Positions 9,006 to 62,600 of a stretch of DNA of 64,000 bases are shown here, piece after piece. Origin of the DNA: Mesostigma viride (taxonomy: Eukaryota > Streptophyta > Mesostigmatophyceae > Mesostigmatales > Mesostigmataceae); contig RPFO01000938.1 of NCBI GenBank assembly GCA_009746045.1, forward strand, positions 846,262-910,261, read 5' to 3'. The position numbers and the translations under genes are program-made. The notes under the pieces were generated by a model, which worked only from the letters and a program-made list of their open reading frames with translations, searched no databases and was not told where the DNA came from. How positions within the stretch are numbered: the first letter of the stretch is position 1; each line of letters opens with the position of its first letter.

Positions 9006-11539
9006 AATTACTTCTACTTGAATGTAAAATAATGGAAATAGTAGTGGTACTACTAATAATGTTACTGGAAAGCAGGCCGTATACTAGAGAACTGCCATAA
9101 TTGAACCGACCAGCATTCCATGGGCGAGGCCTGTTTCAATTACTCACAACGGAGTCTCACGACTGATTTCTAGCGTGTTGGACATGATTTCAGGCTGACA
9201 TGCATGGCTTTAGCTAGGAAACAATATGTAGGGCTTCAGACCTCACAGGATTTGATTTCGCACCAACCACAATGTCACCTTGGGTAGGGGTAGCCTGATT
9301 CACTTGCGTCTGTCACAAGTTGGATGCTGCCAGCTCACCGACCCACTAATCACATGTTAGTGCAGCCGCTTGGTATGCCCCAGGATCAATCACGTCATCA
9401 CTGCCTCCATTTGGGTGCCAGGGAGCATGATCGGATGGGCTGGGTCGTGCCTGCTATCTACACTTGATATGGGATGAATGTTACAGTGCCCTTAGTCATT
9501 GATATGGGATGGATGTTGCAGTGCCCTCAGCCATGGATAGGGGATGAACATGTTCTGCACAAACTCATGCCCAAGGTCGCGCCCACAACCCACCTGAGCC
9601 TTGGCACACACGGCACTTCTTTTTTATCCCTTTGTCATCGACACTGGAGAGGCCCTGGTCGCAGAATACGCACTTGACCCCGCCTGAGGACATGATTCAA
9701 GGTGAGGCATGTGGCGGGCGATCCAACGGCAGACAGAAACAACTTTTATTCGCAACGGTGGCTGCATCACCGTGATCTAGATCACGGGAGCAGGCAGATC
9801 TTGCATCCTTTTTTCATCCTTTTCTTTATTCTTAGCTGCGCCCATGACCAGAGTCGGTGCCTGCATTACTATGAGCCGACCTGCAAATTACTGCAAGCTA
9901 CATCATGTTCCAAAGACTACTATATCTAGAACATCCCTGCTGCAGAATGTCTATGGCTAAAGGGCGTGCTGACTATCTGTTAGAAAACTGTAAGTAGGAT
10001 CTTAAAGTGAGTGTGCCAGCTCGGCTGCAGCTCGGCTGCAGTGTGCCAGCTCGGCTTACAGTGAGTGTGCCAGCTCGGCTGCAGAGGCTGACTTAATCGA
10101 TCTTCAAGGGGACCTTGAAGGGGACCTTGAGAACGGGTGTTGTCCAGCGCCAACAGTGCAGCAAGGAATGTAATATGACTTCTCTTTCAAAATTAACACT
10201 CCCCAGGCTATTCCAGACAAGCACACAACTTGGCAAGCAGGAGGGTAGCAAGGGGGAAGAGGGGGGGGGGGGGGTGGGGGGGAAGATAAGCAGCATCTGG
10301 GTAAGGATGGTTTGGTGTCCATGAGCGACAGTCCAAACAAGCCATAAAAACTTATTTTTTAATTTTTATTTTTTATGGCTATTTCTGTCCCCGGGTCTCT
10401 GAACCCAGGCATGTCCTCAAGAACATGTACTCACAAGGTCGGGTGAGATTCTCACTTGCCGCACTGCTTACACAAGGTGGGGTGAGATTCTCACTTGCCG
10501 CACTGCTTACAACGCTATCGGAAGGCAACCCCTTTTGGGGGACCTTTGGGACCCTAACGCATACTACGACGTATGAAACCTTCTGGGATAAAAAAGAGAA
10601 GGGGGAGCGTCCTTTTGTGTCCAAGAGGGGGGGGGGGGGGGGGGGGCACAACATGAACATGCGCGCTCACCGTTTCCCCCGCACGCACTACAAGGCTCTG
10701 GGTTACCCTGCACCGGCCAACCACACATGGAGGGCCAACCACACATGAACCGCGAGGGGTGACCGGCGCGTAAGGGGAGTAGTGATCGAAAATGGTAGAT
10801 GTAAAACACAGGCAGGCACTTGTGATAAGTGCTACAGGCCGCATGTGAATAGAAAAGGCCTCTCGAGTCCCTACTCCCTAGCGGAATTCAGGGACTTGTG
10901 CGAATGGTAGTAAAACAGCATGCACTTGCGGGGCCCCTGGCTGTCTGGACAACGCCCAATTTCCCATGGGCGCACACGCGAGCATCGCACGTGCATGCAA
11001 GCAAATGCATTACTCGCGTGGGTGTACGCAAACGCGCTGGGTGCCTGAAGCAGGCAGGCTCTCATGTGCCCCCAAAGTCCTGGATGCTTGGGGTTGATTT
11101 CTGGCCACATTACAAATCAGCTGAAAATTGTTGGATCGCCATAATAGTGGAATCACTATAACAGTTGGACCAACTCCCTGGATGGCCCCACCACGCATGG
11201 CCCAGCCCAGCATCTACAAGCAGAGATCTGCCAGCCACTTGTCACAATATCGGGCATTCGGAGCGGCCAGCACACATACGGAAGGCACCGGAGTATTCTG
11301 CTAACCTCACCGTGTCACGTGAGGGATGCGTGATAAACGCCAGCAACTAGACTGAAACAAGGGGTGAATACCTGGCAACAGACAAGCAAGTCCAAGTTTG
11401 GCCTAGTAGTCCCACTAAACAACCTTGTGCAGACTCCGTCTGCTAGCGCACACAGATAAGGAATCGGGCCTAGTGCCACCAGCATGGTGGGCCAAGCCAA
11501 GCACGCATGGATCGTCAGCCATGTGTGGAATGCACTCAC

Positions 11540-55084: not shown

Positions 55085-55690
55085 ATAACTCCGTTGGGAG
55101 TATCAAGGAGACAACCAGCGCAGGCCAGAAATCGGGAGAATATGTAGCACATATCCCAGACTCTGCCGGGACATATGCAACCGCCTTCTGCTGTCGTCGC
55201 AACCACCTCCAGCAGCCTGGCAACACAGTTTTCGCACGATGCTGTACAAGAACAAGGGGTCGCCAGCCGACCCCGGCAACTACAGAGGGGTGTGCATTCA
55301 AAGCGCCCCCCTCAAGCTTCTTATGCGGCTCATCCTGAACCGCCTGCGCACGGCCCTGGACGGTCACCTCAGCGAGACTCAGCACGGCTTCCGTTCAGGT
55401 CGCAACACAGTACAGGCGCTCTTCGCTACTCGCCGACTGGTGGAGGAACTGCAACGCCTTCAGCCTGGTGAGTCCCCTTTGCACCTTGTGCTGGTGGACT
55501 TCATCAAAACCTTCGATTCGGTTTTCTGGCCTGCGCTTTGGGACATCCTCGAGCTGTTCCGGATCCCCCGCCCCCTTATTGCTGTCATCCGCAACCTGCA
55601 TGTATGAAGGGTCCACCACTTCGGTGCGCACTTCTTACGGGACCACGCCCCCATGCCCTTTACAGAAGGGTGTGTGGCAGGGCTGCATAA
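55085..55690 (+). mobile_element. Truncated LINE copy (RT fragment), nearly identical to the full element
   Basis: 55163-55690 matches 47472-47993 almost base for base, with few substitutions, a 3-bp difference in the CTTCTTAT(TAT)GCGG region and a small insertion near 55602 that breaks the frame before motif B. It is preceded by a partial R1 (55100-55140) that itself interrupts a ctccgttgggag/atgtagcacatatcc repeat. High similarity implies a recent shared source. Confidence 0.85.
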
Positions 55691-56628: not shown

Positions 56629-59600
56629 TTACTCTACCAGCAGCTTGCGGCACATCGGGCAGCAGGGCGACACGGCCAGCCACATCTCGGCACAGCCGCG
56701 ATGCATGCGGTGGCGGCACGGGTGGAGCGCGATAATCTGGAGCGGGTCCTGTGTGGCGCCATCAACCCCCCCCAACCCCCCCCCTCCTGCCACCCCGCCA
56801 TTGGCTTCCCCCGGGTCATCGCTCGCCCTGGCTCCGGCATCACCGCCAGGCTCTGCTGCTTCCGATGTCATGCCACTTGTCACGCCACCTGCCACCGCCA
56901 GGTTGCTGCCAACATTGCCCGGCAAGCCGCCGTGTCCACCATCTAATATCCTTCCTCCCACCTTGCAGCCACTCTCCCCCGAAGCTTCGACGGCTCCCCC
57001 AGTACCTGCCCCGCACCGCTTCGCCCCACAACAGCCATGATGCACACCACGTGGTTGCGCCAGGCTTTTCGCACAGGAAGAAGCTCCATACGGTTGAGAC
57101 TCGGCCTTGTCCGTGCCACCGCCAGCTGTCGCATCCACAGGCGATGGCGGCACGTATGCCTGCCCCTCCTGGCCCGTCCCTGCAACACCCTGGCTGGCGG
57201 CCCCGCCGGCGCTCGCGTGTCCCACCCCGCGCAAGCGCGCAAGGCAGATGGGGCACTCTTCACCGGGGGCCACCGTGTCTTCAGAGATAGGCACAAGCAG
57301 CTGTTGCAGGGGTGCAGGAAAAGGGAATGGGGTTAGGGGGGTGGCGGGGGGGGGGGGGGGGGGCAGGGGAGAAAGGGGAGAAAGGGGGGGGAGGGAGGAG
57401 GGTTCACGGAGGGCCATGGGCGACAGCACGTGGGAGTTGTGGCATGATTGGGAGGATATAGATAGAACACTGTCTCACCAGTAGATACGAGCGAACCCTG
57501 AACCCTAAACCCTAAACCCTAAACCCTAAACCCTAAACACTGTCTCACCAGTGGATGCAAGGCGACACGAAAGCGAGCGTGATGGATGTGAAAAATGCGC
57601 GTGCGAGGGATCAGGAATCAGGATAGGGAGGCATCAGGTCCCGTTGCTAACTAATTGTGTCAGGAATCAGGACTGAGGACATAACGGGGCCAAGCGCGCC
57701 AAAAGGCACGAAAAGGATGGGACGGGCAGAAGGAAGGCTGATAAGTATCGACTGCATCCTCCATGCATCCGCACTATGTACTCAGAGCGTATTCACACCG
57801 TATCATTATACTGCGTATTCACACCGTATCATTATACTGCGTATTCACACTGTGTCATTATACTGCGTATTCACACCGTATCATTATACTGCGTATTCAC
57901 ACTGTGTCATTATACTGCGTATTCACACTGTATCATTATACTGCGTAGTCACACTGTGTCATTATACTGCGTATTCACACCGTATCATTATACTGCGTAT
58001 TCACACTGTACACCCACACGGAAGCGTGAGGCGCTTCCAGGCCCACTAGCAGGAACACACACACGGGGCAGGCATCATGGTTGTCTGGTACCACAGTGTT
58101 TGAGGCTTAGGGGGGTCAAGGCCTAGGATTGAAGGTTTATTATGAATTGATTCCCCGTACCCCTTTCCCACAAGGTACGCCCTGACTTATCTTTTGTTCT
58201 TTTTGAGCACTAGTCGTTCTTCCCTCTCCATTCATGCTGTACTTACTTCACATGCACAGACCACGGTGGCGGAACGTGGACGTGCCGCTGACGAGAAGAA
58301 AGTATGGCGCCGCATGGCAACCCCTCCACCAAGTGGGTGTGCAGGCATTCCAACCCTACAATTTCCACTTTCCACCCGTCACTGCCCATACAACTGCACC
58401 TCTTCAGTACCCACCCGCGAGACGTCCAGGGACCCCCCCTCGTGAAACTGCCGCAGCGACGCGCGGAACGTGCGCCGCAGCATCGCGCTGCCGTGGTCCA
58501 TCAGCGCCATGAGAGCCCGGTAGACGGTGGAGGGGCCGCCCACGCCAGGCACGGTCGCCAGGTTGGCCCGCACGCGCACGTAGGGCCGCGTGCGGGTCGT
58601 CCCGGCCCACCCGCGCACCTGGGTGGTGCCGCGCTCCAGCAGGAGCGACAGGAGCGCGTCCTGTGCGTATCCGCGGCCTGGGTGGTCGGATTCCAATTAG
58701 GGGCATCGGGGTTGTGTATAGTGGGGTAGGCAGGGTGGGGTGAGAGCGGGAGGAAGGAAGAAGGGCAGGGAGGGACGGGGGATGGCGGGTAGGGAAGGGT
58801 ATTGGGGGTGCATGGGTGGGTGGGTGGGCCTGAAAACACAAGTGGGGAGCGGTTATTACCTTTTCACTCACATTTAACCCATCCTTAATTCCCTCCCCCG
58901 CCTCTCTCACTCACACTCAGTGCCAGTGCGCCCCAACGCTATCTTCGCAAGGCCATAGTTTGGGGGACCTTTTGCGCCATAAACGGTGATCTTTGGCCTT
59001 TGGATTGCGTCCGTATGCCTGATTATTTCACCTGGGGCTTGCGTAAGAAATAGGTTTGGGGAAAGGGCAGGGGGGGGGGGGGGGGGAAGAAAAAACAGCG
59101 ACCCAGGCGCCGGTTGTAAACGTTAAGGGTGCCTGCCTTCCTTCTCTTGCACTCACACTTGGCCCTGCCCCCACTGCCTCCTTCCCCCCCCCCTTTCATC
59201 CCTGCCCCCACTGCCTCCTCCCGACCGCCTGTTCTTCACACTCGGCGCAGCCCCCTTTCCCCTTCCTCGGATACTCACACTCGGCACTGCCCCCTTTCCC
59301 CTTCCGTCGGATACTCATACTTGGCACTGCCCCCTTTCCCCTTCCTCGGGTACTCACACTCGGCGCTGCCCCCTTTCCCCTTCCGTCGGATACTCACACT
59401 CGGCGCTGCCCCCTTTCCCCTTCCGTCGGATACTCACACTAGGCGCTGCCCCCTTTCCCCTTCCGTCGGATACTCACACTTGGCACTGCCCCCTTTCCCC
59501 TTCCTCGGATACTCACACTCGGCGCTGCCCCCTTTCCCCTTCCTCGGATACTCACACTCGGTGCTGCCCCCTTTCCCCTTCCTCGGATACTCACACTCGG

Positions 59601-62600
59601 CGCTGCCCCCTTTCCCCTTCCTCGGATACTCACACTCGGCACTGCCCCCTTTCCCCTTCCTCGGATACTCACACTCGGCGCTGCCCCCTTTCCCCTTCCT
59701 CGGATACTCACACTCGGCGCTGCCCCCTTTCCCCTTCCTCGGATACTCACACTCGGCACTGCCCCCTTTCCCCTTCCGTCGGATACTCACACTCGGCGCT
59801 GCCCCCTTTCCCCTTCCTCGGATACTCACACTCGGCGCTGCCCCCTTTCCCCTTCCTCGGATACTCACACTCGGCGCTGCCCCCTTTCCCCTTCCTCGGA
59901 TACTCACACTCGGCACTGCCCCCTTTCCCCTTCCGTCGGATACTCACACTCGGCACTGCCCCCTTTCCCCTTCCGTCGGATACTCACACTCGGCGCTGCC
60001 CCCTTTCCCCTTCCGTCGGATACTCACACTCGGCACTGCCCCCTTTCCCCTTCCTCGGATACTCACACTCGGCACTGCCCCCTTTCCCCTTCCGTCGGAT
60101 ACTCACACTCGGCGCTGCCCCCTTTCCCCTTCCGTCGGATACTCACACTCGGCGCTGCCCCCTTTCCCCTTCGTCGGATACTCACACTCGGCACTGCCCC
60201 CTTTCCCCTTCCGTCGGATACTCACACTCGGCACTGCCCCCTTTCCCCTTCCGTCGGATACTCACACTCGGCACTGCCGTCCGTCAGTGCATCCACCAGC
60301 CCCGGCAGCACGCCCGCCTCCAGCAGCGGTGCATGCGCGGCGGGCGCGATTGCAAGGTTGCGGATGAGAGCAACCACCACCTCCCTGCAAGCCATGCTGT
60401 TCGTCTCGGCCAGCAGGCCGGCCAGCAGCGGGGCCCCGTCTGGGATGCGGTGCAGGGATTGGGGGATGGGGATTAAGGGGGTGGGGGCAGGGGCGTAGGG
60501 GGGGTGGGGGAGGTGGCGGGACGATGCACATGGCTGGCGAGCAGGCCTTTGTGAGAAGCGGCCAGCAGGTCAAAAGACTTGCTCTGTCTGGGTAGGTGGT
60601 GAGGAGGAGTACTGGATACCCCTGGAACAAAACAAGCAAGGACGATGGCGTAAGTAAGTAGCAGTGAGTACGTACGTAAGGGTTCAAGGATGATGCAGCA
60701 AGTACCGGGCGCCAGTTGTCGAAGAGAAGGAGACAAACCAACTAACGGGGACAAACAACAGGGTGCTGCGAGGGAGGGTGCGGCGCCTAGTGTTGGCCAG
60801 TGGAAGGAAACGAACATATCCAACAGCTTAAGAGGACCCGTGCGGGGCACCTGCGTGCCGGCGGCAAGTCGTCAAAGGGAACAAAGCTACATGGGATCTA
60901 AACTTCGATGCAATGACCACCAGCCTTATAGCCTGATCGCATAGACTTGAGCTTTTAGGCTTCACACCAGGCGGCGCGTAACGGCGCCCAGTGAGAAACT
61001 AAAAGGAAAACACATCGGAATGCTCATCTGGATTCGTGCCAAGGACCCGCGTACCGGCAGCCAGTATTTGTTCCTGTGCGCGTGGCAGCAGCGCCATCTG
61101 CGTGAGTGCCGCCACCCGCTCCTCCTCCGTGGCGGCCGCGGTGACGGACGCCATCATGTCACCCACAAGCTCCGCCATGGAGGGCTGGCCCGCAAGCCCG
61201 CACGTACAAACTGGTGGTATGTGGTGGCAGGCAAAGAGGGATTACAAAAGGGCAGGCAAGAGGGCAGGCAAGAGGGCAGGCAAGAGGGCAGGCAAGAGGG
61301 CAGGCAAGAGGGCAGGCAAGGGGTGGGGGTTAGGGGGGTGGAGGCAGTAAGCTGGCTACTGTAGAGGTCGCAGGTGGAAAACAAACGCCATGTCTCTATT
61401 TTGGTTCCAGGTCAGTCCAGTGTGTGTCAAGTCACCCCCACCACTGGGTGCCGCTGCTGGCCGACGCAACCGGGGTGATTCAAGATCCATTAGATCTAAA
61501 TATCAAGATTGCAAGGTATGGTATCATGTCACGGTCAGCACACAGCTCCCAGTTTGGTGGTGGTATATTTGCCCGCGGTGTCATTGCTGGATAAAGCTTT
61601 GCCGGTGTTGCTTACTGGGACGAGGTGGCGGACGAAATGGAATGCCACATCTCCGTGTGCGTTCCGATTGCGTCAATGTACCCCCACCAGCCACCACGGG
61701 TTGGCTGTCCCACGCCACTGCAGGGAAGTCAAGATCGCAACATGACCCTAAATCTTGTGATTGCTAAAACTCGCGATTGTGAGGTATGATCGTGAGTACG
61801 AGGTGCAATGTAGCCTGCCAAGTGCGCGCCCGCCAGTGTGAGAGAGGCAGCGTGACCGGACAAGTACATCGCGATTCTGACGATTCTGACGCAATTCTAA
61901 GGTGACGAGATTCTACGCCCAAGCAAGCAGACCCCATGGTGGGGTCACCCTTGTGGCACGTAGGGGTGACGTTGTTGGCCCTCTGGTCGATATCCTCGTT
62001 GACAACAGTAACAAACAAGAGGGGCCACCCTTGTGGAACGTATTTCTAAGGCAAGATAAGGTAAGTGATTACAGTTCTAAATTAATTTCCAAGGCAGTTC
62101 TAAAGTAATTCCCGTTGCTCAAGGTCCTGCGTGTAGATCAAGACCCACATGCCCATAGGGACAGCCAACGGACGGACAAAGCCTAGTTGGCGGGGCCTTT
62201 CCATGGAAGGCAGTTGGGGACATCGTTCATCTGCTTCACCTGTAGGACGTTACGTGCCACAACGCCAGTACGAAGCCTGGTTGCGTTCAACTGCATAGGT
62301 GCATACTAGCCAGCTCAGCCCAACGTGACAGCACGGTATGTTCAGGGCCTGGTCAACTCGGTGACTTATAGAGCTGTACAGGACCAGATGGCGTTTGCAT
62401 CGTGGTTTATGAGGTGCAACATCGGCAGATTACGGACCAGGCATTTGTTGCTTGCCTGGCCAGGACTGTAAAGACCTGGGGGGGTGCGTCTATATCGCCA
62501 CATTATTGCGTCTATATCGCCTTCATTCGCTTAAGAAGGATGCAACCGGGCATGCTCGCTGAGGGATCTGCGGGGGCAAGGGAGGCGGCAGGCAATCTAG

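What the first reader, a model, noticed from the sequence alone, without database searches (positions are those of the whole stretch)
58678..60275. An intron made of about 26 copies of its own splice donor
The exon ending at 60266 has the junction GGCAGTGCCGAGT then GTGAGTATCC, and the first kilobase of the intron is a 39-40-bp tandem array in which every unit carries that same junction. Each unit is a ready donor site in the same context. The true donor is either the first of many equivalent sites or is chosen by position. If distal donors were used, the exon would gain multiples of a Gly/Lys-rich repeat peptide.
Basis: seen in the sequence. Interest (0 to 1): 0.88.

Follow-up and report, generated by a model that had tools for sequence, protein, structure and literature searches.

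The report
Splice donor duplicated into minisatellite array
A short stretch spanning the end of one exon and the start of the next intron has been copied 26 times in a row, giving the intron many spare cut sites that are probably ignored in favour of the first; the same seems to have happened in several other genes of this genome, as was reported earlier for a few genes of the lancelet.

Summary
Confirmed: the intron at 60265-58678 (minus strand) opens with 26 units of 39/40 bp (array 59236-60278, 96% matches), the first holding the last 13 exonic bases plus the donor. Host gene: armadillo repeats plus RING-H2. Of 27 donor positions spliced in silico, only the first keeps frame without a stop; the second shifts frame, the other 25 all read a TGA. 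So the 'Gly/Lys repeat peptide' is wrong for this allele; a pure 39-bp chain would encode it.

It matches the 'mirages' of amphioxus (PMC3087553): minisatellite duplication of an exon-intron boundary. New here is recurrence in this 440-Mb, probably plant-lineage genome: two consensus-donor triplet patterns gave 15 arrays; one reversed control gave 1. I judge 8 of 15, by eye and not blind, to start at a coding exon end. For five of these the next exon was found, and homology runs over the junction when the first donor is used: strong for SPINDLY, LRR and a cation channel, weak for HSPBP1-like and cation-efflux-like. First-donor use fits exon definition (PMC9225289). RNA is untested.

The parts
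59236..60278 (-). Minisatellite of 26.4 units of 39/40 bp; unit = 13 bases like the exon end + donor GTGAGTATCC + purine-rich stretch
   Evidence: TRF; unit listing; 25 GTGAGT in the array
60266..60278 (-). Exonic part of the first unit (GGCAGTGCCGAGT), the coding end of exon B
   Evidence: 13 of 13 bases identical to the next unit
58678..60265 (-). Intron, 1588 nt, GTGAGTATCC...ACCACCCAG, phase 1
61055..61178 (-). Exon A (first ATG found; the true 5' end may lie further upstream)
   Evidence: frame and splice sites
60266..60439 (-). Exon B, armadillo repeats
   Evidence: PDB armadillo/catenin hits
58415..58677 (-). Exon C, begins with the rest of an armadillo-like repeat
   Evidence: 5 of 28 PDB hits extend over residue 99/100 (for example 4rv1, 13-110, whole-sequence E 6.4e-07), but none of those 5 has a single stretch that passes 0.001; the best hit (3ifq) stops at residue 99
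56629..57300 (-). Exon D, split RING-H2 finger and TAA stop
   Evidence: zf-RING_2 29.5 bits against cut-off 27.3; exon ends
59151..59185 (-). Decayed outlying copy of the unit inside the intron
   Evidence: local alignment score 36, best of 300 shuffles 25

Best explanation
A 39-40 bp segment spanning the exon B / intron boundary of an armadillo-RING-H2 gene was tandemly duplicated and then expanded by ordinary minisatellite turnover to about 26 copies (a 'mirage'). The spliceosome most likely keeps using the first, exon-proximal donor, because exon B is recognised as a unit between its own acceptor and the nearest donor (exon definition; flanking introns 615 and 1588 nt). The other copies are carried silently in the intron. 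Any slip to a distal donor gives a frameshift (donor 2) or a premature stop (the others). SHOWN: array, unit, reading frames, the in-frame RING, and the same architecture in other genes of this genome. INFERRED: use of donor 1 in RNA, exon definition as the reason, expansion by slippage or unequal exchange.
For: Array and junction. Of 27 donor positions only the first keeps frame and avoids the stop. The in-frame RING needs that frame; armadillo hits over the junction: 5 of 28. Recurrence: two consensus-donor triplet patterns gave 15 arrays by my grouping (10, 5); 8 of the 15 start at what I read as a coding exon end: L026, L027, L028, L030, L032, L033, L043, L044. For 5 of those 8 the next exon was found, and homology runs over the junction with the first donor: SPINDLY L043/L046 (101 residues without gap, 4e-42; junction), LRR L028/L036 (LRR_8 59.5 bits), cation channel L044/L047 (Ion_trans 37.3 bits; sodium-channel chain without a gap at the junction), HSPBP1-like L027/L035, cation-efflux-like L033/L038. 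Introns of these five: 1008-1548 nt. In the channel gene the first donor is GTAAGG, with GTAAGT copies behind it, and the first is the one the protein match needs, so position and not strength seems to decide there.
Against: No transcript was available. In the window gene the armadillo match over the junction is only moderate: none of the 5 crossing PDB hits has a stretch passing 0.001 alone, the best hit ends exactly at the junction, and Pfam Arm scores 17.6 bits with exon C and 16.0 without it, cut-off 20.6. The HSPBP1-like case (E 0.0073-0.0087; no Pfam hit) and the cation-efflux case (16.2 bits, cut-off 26.6; a SUR7 model scores the same) are weak. For the five other genes I searched only the first-donor protein; distal donors were tested for frame and stops alone. 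The choice of 8 of 15 was by eye and not blind; in L030 and L044 the first donor lies before the array as TRF draws it (96 and 22 nt before the first consensus copy). One control array was found, and the reversed GTAAGT pattern gave 15 matches that I could not list. In L026 the 30-nt units are open in frame, so distal use is possible; in L044 1 of 3 distal donors is in frame. Selection for working genes would favour arrays whose first donor works, so the uniformity is partly expected.
Confidence: 0.8

Rival explanations
1. Regulated use of distal donors: the array is a switch that yields truncated, RING-less armadillo proteins (113 aa) or NMD targets, tuned by copy number.
For: 25 GTGAGT copies; every position from the third on gives the same stop; 52 G-runs of 3 or more in the array, a kind of element that in other systems affects donor choice (recalled, no call).
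Against: No sign of constraint on the donor: private variants hit the donor octamer in 2 units (24 and 25), one of them destroying the GT. The same architecture in unrelated genes suggests a mutational by-product.
Confidence: 0.1
2. Intron born from, or being split by, tandem duplication: a Rogers-type intron or a stwintron in the making, with units acting as both donor and acceptor.
For: Such cases are described in fission yeasts, potato, a vertebrate gene and as a model for amphioxus (PMC4974935, PMC3087553, passages read) and in Lipomyces stwintrons with duplicated donors (PMC7138796, passages read). L025 has units GTGAGT...TTTTGTCCCGCAG with both kinds of site in each unit.
Against: In the window array AGGT is absent (0) and no YTNAY branch-like motif occurs (0); the intron has its own acceptor 558 nt beyond the array.
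Confidence: 0.05
3. Assembly artefact: copy number inflated from a short true array.
For: Tandem arrays are error-prone; no reads were available.
Against: 10 unit types in an irregular order, with private variants lying more towards the far end (Mann-Whitney p 0.046); similar arrays on other contigs.
Confidence: 0.05

Closest known systems
'Mirages' of amphioxus (Adh3, globin BflGb6/BflGb9, TnC, PGBD5); PMC3087553 and PMC3902484, passages read
   Same: Minisatellite-like tandem duplication of a real exon-intron boundary, many copies carrying splice signals; the passages say that regular splicing is not disturbed.
   Different: A different kingdom (probably plant lineage, inferred); 26 copies of 39/40 bp here against 6 and 3 copies of 150-160 bp in the two BflGb6 haplotypes (10-72 bp units in Adh3); found here in several unrelated genes of one genome by pattern search; no RT-PCR here.
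Internal tandem repeats at exon-intron boundaries of human segmental-duplication genes (PMC2812944, passages read)
   Same: Tandem repeats at a boundary changing gene structure.
   Different: There they can form novel introns and alternative transcripts; here the coding product is most likely unchanged.
[quoted passage not shown]
   Same: Tandem duplication that copies splice signals, also in a plant (potato).
   Different: No AGGT in the window unit; the intron does not end in the array.
[D] stwintrons of Lipomyces (PMC7138796, passages read)
   Same: Donor element duplicated.
   Different: There a 4-7 nt duplication with an internal acceptor and branch point; no branch-like motif in the window array.

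Membership tests
Mirage (boundary minisatellite) | Tandem direct repeats of minisatellite size | tested here: met
   26.4 x 39 bp
Mirage (boundary minisatellite) | Unit spans a real exon-intron boundary | tested here: met
   13 exonic + 26/27 intronic bases; that the boundary is real rests on frame, RING and armadillo homology, not on RNA
Mirage (boundary minisatellite) | Normal splicing in transcripts | not testable with these tools
   No RNA data; homology over the junction is indirect and moderate
Mirage (boundary minisatellite) | Copy number unstable between haplotypes | not testable with these tools
   One assembly only; a DNA search found this locus alone
Rogers-type intron gain | AGGT in the duplicated unit | tested here: not met
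   0 AGGT in the array
[D] stwintron | Internal acceptor with branch point behind the duplicated donor | tested here: not met
   CAG in units, but 0 YTNAY in the array
Introner (dispersed intron-making element) | Same sequence at many loci | tested here: not met
   A 291-base query with about 3 units gave 10 matches, all at this locus (the tool skips very common words)

The most novel reading that the evidence does not exclude
In this genome true splice donors are frequent seeds of minisatellite expansion (of the order of 1% of CAGGTGAGT donors; 0.7% by very rough arithmetic), and the spliceosome reliably picks the upstream-most of up to about 26 equal, or even stronger, donors: a genome-wide natural series for testing cross-exon (exon-definition) donor choice outside animals.
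Probability: 0.4. Interest if true: 0.7.

Novelty: new member of a known kind. Interest (0 to 1): 0.5.

Why it matters
Boundary minisatellites are described in lancelets. My descriptive paper searches listed no donor array of this kind in algae or plants, though the library holds only open-licence papers and the one search for the word 'mirage' also required 'amphioxus', so absence elsewhere is not shown. Finding them in unrelated genes of a probable plant-lineage genome suggests a general by-product of minisatellite turnover. They also form a natural competition test with 3 to 26 near-identical donors: the cross-exon proximity rule predicts the first, the classical cross-intron rule the last (both as told in PMC9225289, passages read).

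Tried and rejected
Paralogue or second copy: no match elsewhere at E 0.001. Rfam: 0 matches at gathering scores. Are donor-bearing arrays over-represented among all arrays of the 194-kb sample (window plus 13 stretches, 7 of them on the window's own contig, part of the letters withheld as N)? 3 of 56 arrays carry GTRAGT, 1.87 expected from shuffled units, P 0.29: no. Are CAGGTGAGT arrays over-represented against the reversed word? 10 arrays against 1; single words 2583 against 1831; suggestive only. GTGAGT x3 was swamped by GTGA microsatellites (75,691 matches, reversed control 76,018). Of the 15 arrays fetched, L024, L031 and L041 show no exon at the edge to my eye, and L025, L029, L040 and L042 are undecided (the L025 and L029 peptides had no Pfam match; that of L042 was too short to scan; L024, L031, L040 and L041 were not scanned). 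Two other GTGAGT arrays (L011 4154-4449; window 10006-10084) show no clear exon end by eye. Pherophorin family PF12499: nothing, and nothing in the controls, so uninformative. PF00504 and the TGAATGGAC control did not complete. Downstream exons of L026, L030 and L032 were not found, but that filter also missed the true LRR and SPINDLY acceptors, which I found by motif, so this is weak. I did not find, or look for, arrays with spacings outside 29-58 bp or with other donor words.
Full report
WHAT IS THERE. On the minus strand of the window lies a gene whose exons I place at 61178-61055, 60439-60266, 58677-58415 and 57300-56629. Introns are 615, 1588 and 1114 nt, all GT-AG, and the phases fit. 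The 410-residue product has armadillo repeats (28 PDB sequences at 0.001, best 5.7e-08) and a split RING-H2 finger at the end (zf-RING_2, 29.5 bits, cut-off 27.3). The first ATG may not be the true start. The 1588-nt intron opens with a minisatellite at 59236-60278: 26.4 copies, 39/40 bp, 96% matches. The first unit includes the last 13 coding bases of exon B, identical to the next unit. GTGAGT stands 25 times in the array; unit 25 has lost it. A decayed copy lies at 59185-59151.

WHICH DONOR. I spliced each of 27 donor positions (two of them, 25 and 27, damaged) to 58677. Donor 1 gives the open protein. Donor 2 (+40 nt) shifts the frame. Positions 3-27 all include one TGA, 41 nt into the intron, and end after 113 residues. 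Five of the 28 PDB hits run over residue 99/100, the junction, among them 4rv1 (13-110, no gap at the junction in the printed alignments); none of the five has a single stretch that passes 0.001, and the best hit, plakoglobin, ends at 99. Pfam Arm gives 17.6 bits with exon C and 16.0 without, both below 20.6. The in-frame RING of exon D is the firmer sign that the frame is kept. That RNA uses donor 1 is inferred.

IS IT SELECTED? The 26 units fall into 10 types. Two of the six units with a private change have it in the donor octamer, so there is no sign that the spare donors are guarded. Private changes lie towards the far end (mean unit 19.0 against 11.85, p 0.046), as if newer units lay near the exon; this is a weak test.

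IS IT ALONE? The genome (G000, 439.9 Mb, 2243 contigs, unnamed) is rich in minisatellites: 56 distinct arrays of 12-150 bp period and at least 2.8 copies in the 194-kb sample. A strict pattern, three CAGGTGAGT 29-58 bp apart, gave 37 matches, which I group into 10 arrays; CAGGTAAGT gave 34 matches in 5 arrays. The reversed word TGAGTGGAC gave 8 matches in 1 array; the reversed GTAAGT word gave 15 matches, not listed. I fetched all 15 donor arrays. By eye, not blind, 8 of 15 begin at a coding exon end: L026, L027, L028, L030, L032, L033, L043, L044. In L030 and L044 the first donor stands 96 and 22 nt before the first consensus copy, outside the array as TRF draws it, so there the first copies would be decayed. 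Support for the exon before the junction: LRR for L028 (LRR_8 25.3 bits, cut-off 27; LRR_1 20.8, cut-off 20.6) and WW for L032 (26.2 bits, cut-off 26.9), both; SPINDLY for L043 (4e-23); Ion_trans for L044 (27.3 bits, cut-off 25); armadillo for L027 (2.2e-04, no stretch passing alone); weak for L030 (NEPRO_N, 13 bits, E 0.083); none for L026, and nothing specific for L033. Four of 15 are undecided (L025, L029, L040, L042), three of 15 show nothing to my eye (L024, L031, L041).

FIRST DONOR IN FIVE MORE GENES. I fetched the downstream side of these 8 and found the next exon in 5. L043/L046: SPINDLY, 101 residues aligned without a gap to residues 519-619, E 4e-42; the junction is ...RPAPVQ|VTWIGYPN..., 17-bp units, 21.6 copies, intron 1076 nt. 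L028/L036: LRR_8 59.5 bits, best stretch 44-101 spanning the junction at 53/54, intron 1008 nt; its acceptor is duplicated too, 84 bp upstream. L044/L047: channel S5-pore, Ion_trans 37.3 bits; a sodium-channel chain aligns without a gap at the junction; the first donor GTAAGG has GTAAGT copies behind it; intron 1261 nt. L027/L035: HSPBP1 chains 5-70 over the junction at 45, E 0.0073-0.0087, and a designed armadillo protein at 4.7e-06; no Pfam hit; intron 1362 nt. L033/L038: Cation_efflux 38-86 over the junction at 59, 16.2 bits, below the cut-off 26.6, with an equal SUR7 score; intron 1548 nt. I did not search distal-donor versions of these proteins; I tested their frames. Distal donors in frame and before a stop: L026 2 of 2, L044 1 of 3, and 0 of 8, 2, 17, 2, 2, 6, 18 and 25 in L027, L028, L030, L032, L033, L042, L043 and the window (one search used a wrong phase for L044, corrected).

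HOW IT WORKS. Best reading: random tandem duplication at the boundary, then slippage or unequal exchange; the first donor is kept because the exon is recognised as a unit. PMC9225289 (passages read) reports that with long introns (over 250 nt) and donors of near equal strength the upstream donor, near across the exon, is preferred, and with short introns the downstream one. All six introns that hold the arrays and were measured exceed 1 kb; the upstream intron was measured only in the window gene (615 nt). Selection for working genes would give the same picture, so the data fit exon definition and do not prove it.

RATE. CAGGTGAGT occurs 2583 times, the reversed word 1831 times. Taking the difference, less about 70 array copies, as true donors, five arrays with this exact first donor at an exon end (L026, L027, L028, L032, L033) would be about 0.7%. 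This is very rough. In the 194-kb sample donor words in arrays are not above chance (3 of 56, 1.87 expected), so no mechanism aimed at donors is needed.

WHAT IS KNOWN. [quoted passage not shown] PMC2812944, PMC4974935 and PMC7138796 (passages) cover tandem repeats at boundaries, intron gain (also in potato and fission yeasts) and duplicated donors. My descriptive searches listed no donor array of this kind in algae or plants; the search for 'mirage' required 'amphioxus' and cannot show absence elsewhere; the library holds only open-licence papers. Lineage: SPINDLY as best hit and a TTTAGGG-type repeat (57494-57538) suggest the plant lineage; this is inference.

VERDICT. It is a mirage, a known kind, in a new and probably distant genome where it recurs.

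Noticed in passing
57787-58010: Second minisatellite (26 bp x 8.6) in the next intron of the same gene; its unit shares AGTGTGA-TA with the donor array unit; not at an exon edge of my gene model.
   Followed up: partly
57494-57538: Short AACCCTA (TTTAGGG-type, telomere-like) array inside the last intron.
   Followed up: no
55089-55607 (+): Open frame that looks by eye like a piece of a non-LTR retrotransposon reverse transcriptase.
   Followed up: no
L025 680-980: 37-bp units, 8.2 copies, GTGAGT...TTTTGTGTTTTGTCCCGCAG: donor-like and pyrimidine-rich acceptor-like sequence in most units.
   Followed up: partly
L036, reverse strand about 600 and 684: Duplicated 3' splice junction 84 bp apart in the same intron whose donor is tandemly repeated (L028).
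   Followed up: partly
L026 (reverse strand) 540-645: 30-bp donor units open in frame (VSAFLNKQRQ), so distal donors would add in-frame peptide repeats there.
   Followed up: partly
L021 1-10000; L011 5826 to L012 7039: Very long satellites: a 29-bp unit filling a whole 10-kb stretch, and a 45-bp unit over about 11 kb near the window.
   Followed up: no
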